DNA from: Chryseobacterium gleum
GTDB lineage: Bacteria; Bacteroidota; Bacteroidia; Flavobacteriales_D; Crocinitomicaceae
Length of the DNA: 64,000 bases
Assembly: GCA_945862165.1 (NCBI GenBank)
Contig: CAMAXI010000007.1
Span: forward strand, 62,001 to 126,000
Direction of reading: 5' to 3'
The first letter of the stretch is position 1; each line of letters begins with the position of its first letter. The notes beneath the pieces were generated by a model. It had not been told where the DNA came from. It saw only the letters and a program-made list of their open reading frames with translations, and did no database searches. The translations under genes were made by a program, and so were the position numbers. This document shows positions 34,465 to 36,988 of this stretch, piece after piece.

Positions 34465-35589
34465 ATGATTACTCGATATATTCAAAAAAGCATTGAAGAT
34501 AAGTTGTTTAAAGGGAAAGTGATTACACTACTAGGCGCAAGACAAACAGGAAAAACTACTTTGTTAAAATTAATTGCAAAGAATTATTCAAAGATGGTTT
34601 GGTTGAATGCCGATGAATATGATATCCAAGAAAAATTCAAGAATCCAACATCAACGGGTTTAAAAGCATTGATTGGAAGTGCCGAGCTTGTGGTCATTGA
34701 TGAAGCGCAAAAGATTTCAGGAATTGGATTGGCACTAAAATTATTAGTGGATAATTACCCATCCATCCAAATAATTGCGACAGGTTCTTCCGCTTTTGAA
34801 CTATCGAATAAATTAAACGAACCTTTAACTGGTAGAAAATTTGAATTTCAATTATATCCAATTACAACAACGGAATTAAATCTACATCATACAGAACTCA
34901 TTGAAAATCGCATGTTACAACATCGATTAGTCTATGGTTATTATCCGGATGTAATCAATAATGAAGGTAACGAAATAGAAATCTTAAAGTTATTAGCGGA
35001 TAGTTATTTATTTAGAGATATTTTGATGCTTGAAAACATTAAAAAACCAGAGAAATTAATTAAATTAATCAAAGCATTAGCATTTCAAGTTGGCAATGAA
35101 GTTTCGTATAATGAAATTGGAAATTTAATTGGATTAGACAGTAAAACGGTAGAATCGTATATTCAAATACTCGAAAAATCCTTCGTTATTTATAAGTTGT
35201 CTTCGTTTAGTAGGAATCAGCGAAATGAATTAAAAAACGGGAAGAAAATTTATTTTTATGATAATGGTATTCGTAATGCATTGATTTCAAACTTTCAATT
35301 AGTAGAAGGCAGACAAGATATTGGTGCGCTTTGGGAGAATTACCTGATTTCTGAAAGGATAAAACAAAATGAATATTTAAAGCGATACGCAAATAGTTAT
35401 TTCTGGAGAACCAAAGATGGATTAGAGATTGATTATGTGGAAGAAGTAAACGGGGTTTTGTCTGCCTATGAATTTAAATGGAATGTCCATAAAAAACATA
35501 GAATTACATCGGTCTTTTCAAAAACATACGGAATTGCGGAGGTAAAAGTGATTACGCCAGAAAATTACATGGAATTTGTTACTTTTTAA
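34465..35589 (+). CDS. AAA_14 / DUF4143 ATPase
   Basis: 374 residues. The N-terminal AAA-type domain has Walker A GARQTGKTT (residues 24-32), Walker B LVVIDEAQ and the sensor stretch IIATGSSAFELS. A winged-helix-like segment follows (VSYNEIGNLIGLDSKTVESY, about 212-232), then the DUF4143 C-terminus, which resembles a nuclease-type core fold (FWRTKDGLEIDYVEE, YEFKWNVHKKHR). The family is very common in accessory DNA of Bacteroidota and archaea, and no cellular function is established. The winged helix and the large palindrome overlapping the promoter suggest self-regulation. Confidence 0.85.
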   Translation: MITRYIQKSIEDKLFKGKVITLLGARQTGKTTLLKLIAKNYSKMVWLNADEYDIQEKFKNPTSTGLKALIGSAELVVIDEAQKISGIGLALKLLVDNYPSIQIIATGSSAFELSNKLNEPLTGRKFEFQLYPITTTELNLHHTELIENRMLQHRLVYGYYPDVINNEGNEIEILKLLADSYLFRDILMLENIKKPEKLIKLIKALAFQVGNEVSYNEIGNLIGLDSKTVESYIQILEKSFVIYKLSSFSRNQRNELKNGKKIYFYDNGIRNALISNFQLVEGRQDIGALWENYLISERIKQNEYLKRYANSYFWRTKDGLEIDYVEEVNGVLSAYEFKWNVHKKHRITSVFSKTYGIAEVKVITPENYMEFVTF

Positions 35590-35671
35590 ACGTCTTTTAT
35601 CTTTTGGTTTATTCCATTAGAATACAACCGATACACTTCTATAATCATTCGATAAAAGAATAAACACCAAA

Positions 35672-35720
35672 ATTTGCGGTGAAAAAGCCTTATTTTCACC
35701 GCATAATCTGCGGTGTAAAT
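35672..35720. repeat. Fic upstream repeat, copy 1
   Basis: A 49-base unit with two inverted half-sites, GCGGTGAAAA (35676-35685) and TTTTCACCGC (35693-35702), separated by 7 bases, then a third direct half-site GCGGTGTAAA (35710-35719). Copy 2 lies 139 bases downstream with two mismatches. Confidence 0.75.
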
Positions 35721-35810
35721 CAACTAAAATAGCAACCATCCCTTTTTTTACCCGCTCAAATTTTACCTTGTACGCCTTTAAAATAATTAGATTAACGAAT
35801 AAAATCGCTA

Positions 35811-35859
35811 ATTTGCGGTGAAAAAGCCTTATTTTTACCGCATAATCTGCGGTGAAAAT
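35811..35859. promoter_or_regulatory. Fic upstream repeat, copy 2, overlapping the fic start codon (probable operator)
   Basis: It has the same architecture as copy 1: GCGGTGAAAA (35815-35824), TTTTTACCGC (35832-35841) and GCGGTGAAAA (35849-35858). The last base of the third half-site is the A of the fic ATG, so binding would block initiation of transcription or translation. Confidence 0.65.
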
Positions 35860-36988
35860 GTATATACACGAAAGAGAACATTGGACTAATTTTATTTGGG
35901 ATAACGATAAATTATCTGTCAAATTATTAGAAGTTAGGTATTTGCAAGGTCGGTTACTAGGCAAAATGGAAGGCTTAGGGTTTGATTTGATTGAAAGTGC
36001 TACGTTAGAATCCCTTATTTTAGATGTCGTTGATACATCTAGGATTGAAGGCGAATTCTTGAATCCAGAACTTGTAAGATCCTCTATTGCAAGAAAATTA
36101 GGTGTGGAAAATGCTGAATTTGTAACGACACCGAGAAATATTGATGGAATTGTTGATGTGATTTTAGATGCAAGCCAAAACTTTGAAAAGCCTTTAACAG
36201 AAGAAAGACTATTTGGTTGGCATAATTCGTTGTTTCAATCAGGATTTAGTGGGCATGTCCCAATTGATGTTGCAAAATATCGTTCAGGTGGGATGAAAGT
36301 TGTTTCCGGTAATTTTGGTAAAGAAAAAATTCATTTTGTAGCTCCATCTGCTGATAGAGTTTTATCCGAAATGGAACGTTTTTTGAATTGGCTTAACGAG
36401 GATACAAAGGTAGATTTAGTAGTGAAATCAATAATTGCCCATTTTTGGTTTGTGACAATTCACCCTTTTGATGATGGCAATGGCAGGATCGCACGTGCAA
36501 TTTTAGATATGTTATTAGCAAAAAGTGATAAAAGTAAAATCCGTTTTTATAGTCTTTCGAATCAAATATTTAAAGAGCATAAAAAATACAATGAAATCAT
36601 TGAGAAAACACAAAAAGGAACCCAAGATATAACAGCGTATTTGGATTGGTTTTTAGGTTGTTTTGAAAGAGCTTTGTTGGCAAGTGAACAAAATTTAGAG
36701 TTAATTTTAGATAAAGCGCACTTTTGGGAAAGACATAAATCCATCCAAGTAAATAAGCGTCAGAGATTTGTAATTAATTATTTTTATGATAATTATTACA
36801 ATGGTGTCGGTTTTTTACGTTCATCGGCGTATGCAAAATTGGTGAAATGCTCTACAGATACTGCTTTGCGTGATTTACAAGATCTAGTCTCCAAAGAAAT
36901 GCTAAAAATTGAAAATAAAGGCAAAAAGACAAACTATATTATAGTAAGTCCCAAGGGAATCCGGATTCCAAAAATTTCAGAATCATAA
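35858..36988 (+). CDS. Fic-domain AMP-transferase with N-terminal inhibitory helix and C-terminal winged helix
   Basis: 376 residues from the ATG at 35858; a GTG at 35852 would add two residues. The N-terminal DUF4172-like domain contains TSRIEG (60-65), matching the inhibitory motif [S/T]xxxE[G/N], in which Glu64 would block ATP. The Fic core has the full motif HPFDDGNGRIAR beginning at His202. The C-terminal domain (about 295-376, QRFVINYFYDNYYNG to KGKKTNYIIV) looks like a winged helix. Fic proteins transfer AMP (or other phospho-groups) to target hydroxyls. It is thus a class II, self-inhibited enzyme, probably repressing its own gene through the GCGGTGAAAA sites. Target unknown. Confidence 0.9.
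   Translation: MYIHEREHWTNFIWDNDKLSVKLLEVRYLQGRLLGKMEGLGFDLIESATLESLILDVVDTSRIEGEFLNPELVRSSIARKLGVENAEFVTTPRNIDGIVDVILDASQNFEKPLTEERLFGWHNSLFQSGFSGHVPIDVAKYRSGGMKVVSGNFGKEKIHFVAPSADRVLSEMERFLNWLNEDTKVDLVVKSIIAHFWFVTIHPFDDGNGRIARAILDMLLAKSDKSKIRFYSLSNQIFKEHKKYNEIIEKTQKGTQDITAYLDWFLGCFERALLASEQNLELILDKAHFWERHKSIQVNKRQRFVINYFYDNYYNGVGFLRSSAYAKLVKCSTDTALRDLQDLVSKEMLKIENKGKKTNYIIVSPKGIRIPKISES

What the first reader, a model, noticed from the sequence alone, without database searches (positions are those of the whole stretch)
35672..35860. Two 49-base repeats with six GCGGTGAAAA half-sites; the last one ends on the fic start codon
Each repeat has the order half-site, inverted half-site, direct half-site. 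The copies are 139 bases apart and differ at two positions. The third half-site of copy 2 shares its last base with the ATG. The Fic protein has a C-terminal winged helix, so autoregulation with looping between the two copies is an attractive model. Copies in different sequence contexts suggest selection on the whole 49-base unit, not just the half-site.
Basis: partly seen in the sequence, partly recalled or inferred. Interest (0 to 1): 0.7.

Follow-up and report, generated by a model that had tools for sequence, protein, structure and literature searches.

The report
Self-regulating DNA sites of Fic enzymes
The repeated DNA motif in front of this bacterial Fic enzyme gene looks like the landing site that the enzyme's own DNA-binding tail uses to switch off its gene, and the same layout recurs in front of most related Fic genes that were examined, in many kinds of bacteria.

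Summary
In detail: two 49-base units, 139 bases apart, 2 mismatches; the last half-site ends on the A of the fic ATG. The inverted pair occurs only here in its own genome.
The unit is a 29-bp inverted pair (TGCGGTGA-N13-TCACCGCA type) plus a third half-site 34 bases from the first. Such a lattice stands in front of 176 of 193 DUF4172-Fic genes (shuffles 7.8; neighbouring reading frames 7 of 243), and of 68 of 78 viral-contig relatives.
The gene-proximal pair contains a -10-like TATAWT in 40 of 74 cases against 5 of 90 for distal pairs. Half-site letters differ between genes and covary best with residue 333, the first residue of the predicted recognition helix of the protein's own winged helix. 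Tree-based and small-sample tests of this last point are weak or mixed.
Best reading: the Fic dimer represses its own promoter. Looping is not supported: the distal copy is missing in 11 of 11 full-length orthologues at 72-85% identity. Self-repression is already proven for another Fic protein, CccR; new here are the family-wide operator and its apparent specificity code.

The parts
35814..35842 (+). Gene-proximal operator: 29-bp inverted pair of half-sites TGCGGTGA / TGCGGTAA
   Evidence: an inverted pair of TGYNNNRA half-sites at this spacing (21 nt start to start) in 106 of 151 fic upstreams, shuffles 0.2
35848..35858 (+). Third, direct half-site TGCGGTGAAAA, 34 nt from the first, ending on A of the ATG
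   Evidence: 34 is the commonest direct spacing in the own-family set (30 pairs, with 23 at 33) and in the named set (47 pairs)
35830..35835 (+). TATTTT at positions 17-22 of the proximal operator, where many relatives have TATAWT; candidate -10/-7 promoter element
   Evidence: TATAWT at this position in 40 of 74 proximal against 5 of 90 distal pairs; inference for this gene
35675..35703 (+). Distal copy of the inverted pair (copy 1), perfect 11-bp arms
   Evidence: among the orthologues seen only in window and L029, and changed more than copy 2
35709..35719 (+). Third half-site of copy 1, TGCGGTGTAAA
35858..36988 (+). fic gene: DUF4172 + Fic domain (HPFDDGNGRIAR, inhibitory TSRIEG) + C-terminal winged helix
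   Evidence: Pfam DUF4172 9.3e-28, Fic 2.1e-17; PADLOC SoFic profile 9.2e-39; model pLDDT 92.2, best match 8CIL TM 0.90
36755..36943 (+). Predicted winged helix (residues 300-362: helices 300-311, 322-329, 333-345, wing 349-354 / 357-362)
   Evidence: AlphaFold2 model from alignment A2
36854..36892 (+). Predicted recognition helix, residues 333-345; residues 333 (T) and 337 (L) covary with half-site letters
   Evidence: for weaker tests

Best explanation
The 49-base unit is the operator of a self-repressing Fic gene. A dimer of the Fic protein, joined through its DUF4172 region, puts its two C-terminal winged helices on the inverted half-sites 21 bp (two turns) apart, over the promoter's -10 region; further half-sites 33-34 bp away on about the same face let a second dimer join. 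RNA polymerase is kept out, so a potentially toxic AMP-transferring enzyme stays scarce. Copy 1 upstream is probably a duplicated promoter segment or relic, at most an auxiliary site. Shown by comparison: conserved geometry, promoter overlap, statistical match of motif and recognition helix. Inferred: binding, dimer occupancy, repression, toxicity.
For: Lattice in 176 of 193 fic upstreams against 7.8 in shuffles and 7 of 243 neighbouring reading frames; three or more linked sites in 113 of 193 against 0.2 and 1 of 243. The spacings were read off the own-family set; in sets not used for that the lattice holds in 69 of 80 named loci and 68 of 78 viral-contig loci (no shuffle run there, near-copies not removed). 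Spacing peaks: convergent 21, direct 34 (own family also 33), divergent 12/13. TATAWT inside the proximal pair in 40/74 against 5/90 distal. Residue 333 has the highest mutual-information score with half-site positions 4-6 among the protein columns: 105 sequences, z 12.9; 145 sequences, z 12.8, 319 columns; 71 named sequences, z 5.5 (position 6 alone 7.0), 269 columns; it stays first for position 6 without K/R333. It is the first residue of the predicted recognition helix. Clade counts: T333 clades carry T at half-site position 6 in 17 of 18, Q/P/S/N333 clades in 19 of 56, p 5e-6; Q/P clades carry A in 19 of 37, T/S/N clades in 1 of 37, p 2e-6 (contrasts chosen after seeing the table). Precedent: CccR represses its own promoter through inverted repeats and must dimerise (PMC9755527, passages). 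The DUF4172-Fic CbFic2 binds DNA by its winged helix and is brought to dimers by 20-bp but not 10-bp DNA (PMC10628234, passages).
Against: No binding or expression data exist for this protein. The sister-pair test did not single out residue 333 (p 0.39 and 0.14, 52 pairs). The tree co-change test was mixed: ranks 4, 1, 6 of 361 with 105 sequences, ranks 39, 14, 2 and 233 with 145; residue 337 never stood out there. For half-site positions 2-3 and 4 taken alone other columns lead, some through very few sequences, and for position 5 with 145 sequences 337 is ahead of 333. In 39 new viral-contig sequences residue 333 ranked 77 and 65 of 283; the letter rule from the first set was right in 18 of 35 (permutation p 0.009; always guessing C gives 14). 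17 of 193 genes failed the lattice test, though several of these show half-sites by eye. 14 intergenic operator copies have no recognised fic remnant, so fic may not be the only gene with such sites.
Confidence: 0.86

Rival explanations
1. RNA-level control: the inverted arm and the third half-site form a hairpin in mRNA that hides the start codon.
For: window 35826-35875 folds at -15.2 kcal/mol, z -4.25, with the AUG in the stem; divergent half-sites 12/13 apart recur.
Against: Does not explain the direct 33/34 repeats, the upstream arrays, the -10 element inside the pair, or covariation with the winged helix. If the -10 lies at 35830-35835 the transcript would begin after most of the 5' arm (inference). 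The lattice test placed a third half-site within 22 nt of the ATG in only 35 of 193. It could act in addition on read-through mRNA from upstream.
Confidence: 0.06
2. The units are mobile-element ends or dispersed repeats that carried the fic gene and remained as scars.
For: 14 intergenic copies without recognised fic and 5 beside fic remnants among 71 places; 4 related genomes share one copy next to a cytidine-deaminase-like gene; several lie between convergent frames. Copy 1 may be such a relic.
Against: 46 of 71 stand in front of fic; the -10 element and the covariation are not expected of element ends. Only two copies in the own genome. I made no dedicated search for transposases or terminal repeats.
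Confidence: 0.05
3. The sites bind a different, unlinked transcription factor; covariation with the Fic winged helix reflects shared ancestry.
For: Sister-pair and tree tests and the small viral-contig sample do not firmly single out residue 333.
Against: The best column falls on the first residue of the predicted recognition helix in three overlapping samples, with almost no background in the named set (median z 0.1). The motif is largely tied to fic in a 240-genome scan (46 of 71 places). Paralogues in one genome mostly carry different half-sites (13 of 14 scorable pairs differ, against 76% of between-genome pairs; not significant by itself).
Confidence: 0.03

Closest known systems
CccR of Yersinia pseudotuberculosis (PDB 7XUX; PMC9755527)
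   Same: Fic enzyme with C-terminal helix-turn-helix; dimer binds inverted repeats near -35 and -10 of its own promoter and represses itself (passages)
   Different: Distant fold relative (TM 0.50; E 6.6e-4 by sequence); footprint is AGATAATCAT-N26-ATGATAATCT, unlike the 29-bp lattice here; secreted by a type VI system
CbFic2 (PDB 8CIL; PMC10628234)
   Same: Same architecture DUF4172 + Fic + winged helix; E 4.7e-87, TM 0.90; dimer through DUF4172; DNA binding by the winged helix (passages)
   Different: Random DNA was used in that paper's binding and activity assays and its specific site is left open
SoFic / EcSofic single-gene anti-phage system (PMC12249575)
   Same: Class II Fic with C-terminal domain; PADLOC SoFic profile matches at 9.2e-39
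   Different: Lower fold match (Shewanella SoFic TM 0.57-0.59); no DNA-mediated regulation in the passages seen

Membership tests
DUF4172-Fic (CbFic2-like) proteins | DUF4172 + Fic domains with HxFx(D/E)GNGRxxR and N-terminal (S/T)xxxE(G/N) (motifs recalled) | tested here: met
   Pfam hits; HPFDDGNGRIAR and TSRIEG in the sequence
DUF4172-Fic (CbFic2-like) proteins | C-terminal winged helix | tested here: met
   model residues 300-362, Foldseek 8CIL TM 0.90 over the full chain
Autorepressed Fic gene (as CccR) | Inverted repeats over the own promoter | tested here: met
   promoter by sequence motif only
Autorepressed Fic gene (as CccR) | Protein binds its promoter and represses it | not testable with these tools
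   needs binding and reporter assays
CccR operator type | 10-bp inverted boxes separated by 26 bp | tested here: not met
   here the inverted half-sites are 21 nt start to start, 29 bp outer length
SoFic anti-phage system | Protection against phage | not testable with these tools
   only profile similarity
SoFic anti-phage system | NCBIfam SoFic equivalog cut-off (550 bits) | tested here: not met
   51.5 bits
Dispersed repeat / mobile element | Many copies at unrelated loci of one genome | tested here: not met
   only the two copies in the own genome

The most novel reading that the evidence does not exclude
The operator is also the enzyme's off-switch. Tight autorepression keeps roughly as many Fic dimers as sites, parked on the chromosome in the de-AMPylating dimer state reported for CbFic2 on DNA. 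Loss or masking of the chromosome, for example when a phage breaks it down, would free monomers that AMPylate and stop the cell: a chromosome-integrity sensor with a paralogue-specific address code read by residue 333.
Probability: 0.1. Interest if true: 0.9.

Novelty: new variant of a known kind. Interest (0 to 1): 0.6.

Why it matters
It supplies a concrete candidate DNA target for a widespread class of AMP-transferring enzymes; the CbFic2 study left the specific site of its enzyme open (PMC10628234, passages). It also offers a natural, comparative data set for how a winged helix reads DNA, and predicts that many such enzymes keep themselves scarce. My literature searches found CccR and CbFic2 but no report of this operator family; they cover open-licence PMC papers only.

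Tried and rejected
Looping between copies: rejected as a conserved feature. Link with the upstream AAA_14-DUF4143 gene: rejected, a homologue was found in 4 of 199 fic loci, two of them (window and L030) close relatives. Half-site as genome-wide motif: outside this promoter the genome has five exact TGCGGTGAAAA copies; four printed with context (L001, L002, L003, L008) are single sites, one (C8:82194) was not read. An early pattern was misspelt by one base and found nothing; it was repeated with changes. A first structure job without an alignment gave pLDDT 38 and was not used. A word-count statistic on 8-mers was too blunt and was replaced by the lattice test. Within-genome paralogue difference (1 of 14 scorable pairs alike against 23.7% between genomes) points the expected way but is too small to lean on; four paralogues without a half-site call were left out. 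The place classes were sorted by hand. Rows dropped: six of 199 loci before (too little upstream DNA or odd start); proteins under 340 residues and near-copies (85% or more) before the covariation tests; one phylum match at a contig edge was not fetched; two of 80 viral loci.

Full report
Observation. The two 49-base units lie at 35671-35719 and 35810-35858, 139 bases apart with 2 differences. Each holds half-sites in the order direct, inverted, direct. The last ends on the A of ATG 35858. In the own genome (2.89 Mb, 38 contigs) the pattern TGCGGNGA-N13-TNNCCGCA occurs only at these two places, a looser pattern finds nothing else below 3 mismatches, and the 193-base region has no second full copy.

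The gene. The reading frame codes DUF4172 + Fic. A model built from the window's protein and the 80 named relatives has mean pLDDT 92.2. It ends in a winged helix with a predicted recognition helix at 333-345, and matches CbFic2 (8CIL) at TM 0.90. The upstream AAA_14-DUF4143 gene is not a conserved neighbour (4 of 199 loci).

Relatives. Of 240 genomes of the same family, 58 have matches, 77 in all (DNA). By their record titles, mostly of metagenome bins, they come from Bacteroidota, Proteobacteria, Planctomycetes, Verrucomicrobia, Acidobacteria, Chloroflexi, Nitrospira and others, one from an archaeal bin. Of 395 genomes of the phylum, 40 (the own genome among them) match at E 1e-50 and gave 42 further loci. 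Six of these 199 were dropped for too little upstream DNA or an odd start. A few loci of different sets are near-copies of each other (for example L034 and L106, by their upstream DNA); near-identical proteins (85% or more) were removed before the covariation tests only. L106, titled a Flavobacteriales bacterium, shares its upstream DNA with L034 of the window's family, which hints at that order for the window.

Lattice. With half-sites T-N5-R-A, spacings convergent 21, direct 33/34 or divergent 12/13 and at least 6 of 8 equal letters, 176 of 193 genes have two or more linked sites and 113 have three or more. Dinucleotide shuffles give 7.8 and 0.2, and 243 neighbouring reading frames of the named loci give 7 and 1. 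Three or more were found in 43 of 71 own-family, 55 of 80 named and 15 of 42 further phylum loci. The spacings were read off the own-family set, so that set alone would be circular. The named set, without preselection, peaks at convergent 21 (57 pairs, next 6), direct 34 (47; then 55 with 17 and 54 with 15; 33 has 8) and divergent 13 (28). Viral contigs, not used before, give 68 and 42 of 78 (no shuffle run, near-copies kept). At about 10.5 bp per turn (recalled), 21 and 33-34 bp place the sites on nearly the same face. CccR's DNA-binding helices are 70.2 A apart, close to 21 bp of B-DNA (recalled rise), but CccR's own footprint has a longer spacer, so this is only suggestive.

Promoter. Among 164 convergent pairs, the 74 nearest the gene have T 85% and A 89% at positions 17 and 18 and TATAWT in 40. 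The 90 distal pairs have 37% and 17%, and TATAWT in 5. This fits a -10 element built into the proximal operator, hence repression by occlusion.

Specificity. Half-site cores differ: GGT, GGA, GGC, AAC, TAC and rarer ones. For positions 4-6 together the highest mutual-information score belongs to residue 333 (z 12.9) and the second to 337 (z 8.1) with 105 sequences (361 columns). With 145 sequences it is again 333 (12.8) and 337 (11.7), 319 columns. In 71 named sequences 333 is first for positions 4-6 (5.5) and for position 6 (7.0), median column 0.1; for position 6 it is also first when K/R333 sequences are left out. These samples overlap and are not independent. T333 goes mainly with T at position 6, Q and P mostly with A, K mostly with C; clade counts give p 5e-6 and 2e-6, for contrasts chosen after seeing the table. 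Against this: for positions 2-3 and 4 alone other columns lead, and for position 5 with 145 sequences 337 leads; the sister-pair test found nothing for 333; the branch co-change test was mixed; and in 39 new viral-contig sequences 333 ranked 77 and 65 of 283, although the letter rule still beat chance (18 of 35, p 0.009; the commonest letter alone would give 14). I regard residue 333 as a likely but not proven specificity residue.

Copy 1. Only the window and L029 have it; 11 orthologues at 72-85% have the proximal unit alone within 210 bases (L092 left out, only its 3' half matches). Copy 1 differs between window and L029 at 3 of 45 positions, copy 2 at none. The looping model therefore has no comparative support.

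Where else. The pattern TGCGGNGA-N13-TNNCCGCA hits 71 places in 240 genomes; the reversed control gives 4 hits. Sorted by hand: 46 in front of fic, 5 beside fic remnants (four by tblastn, one by eye), 14 intergenic without recognised fic, 6 inside reading frames. In three lineages (L217 with L218, L224, L231) the operator is followed by a piece of the fic 3' end that starts at about codon 337-343 of the matched relative. So fic genes are lost and can leave operators behind. Some orphans between convergent frames are followed by T runs and might serve as terminators (inference).

Known or new. CccR is a proven self-repressing Fic protein (PMC9755527, passages read) and CbFic2 a DNA-binding DUF4172-Fic without a known site (PMC10628234, outline with abstract and passages). 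EcSofic acts in phage defence (PMC12249575, passages). The present operator family is therefore a new variant of a known kind. Searches showed no earlier description in the held open-licence papers.

Noticed in passing
L217:2999-3128, L218:2973-3102, L224:2922-3079, L231:1738-1873: Operator followed by a remnant of the fic 3' end starting at about codon 337-343 in three separate lineages, so at least the first part of the recognition helix is gone. Its LRD codons (TGCGNGA-like) may recombine with a half-site.
   Followed up: partly
L220:2920, L221:3021, L223:2533, L225:2973: The same orphan operator next to a cytidine-deaminase-like frame (named by eye) in four related genomes for which one search listed no fic match; could be a relic or a two-way terminator.
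   Followed up: no
L219:2769-2830: Two operators about 900 bases upstream of fic, beyond a 193-aa frame, in what looks like a duplicated promoter region.
   Followed up: no
L021 (own genome, C2), upstream of another fic: A fic gene that the window protein does not match at E 1e-30 has several ACGGTAAA / TTTTACCGT-like repeats upstream (by eye), perhaps another self-operator class.
   Followed up: no
L271, L272, L273, L274, L275: Distant relatives (32-35%) show, by eye, TGAGCCGA or TGAGGCGA half-sites with the same 29-bp layout and a different recognition helix (ATATRD).
   Followed up: partly
window 34465-35589: AAA_14-DUF4143 ATPase gene matching the PADLOC candidate defence family PDC-S01 at 2.7e-159.
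   Followed up: no
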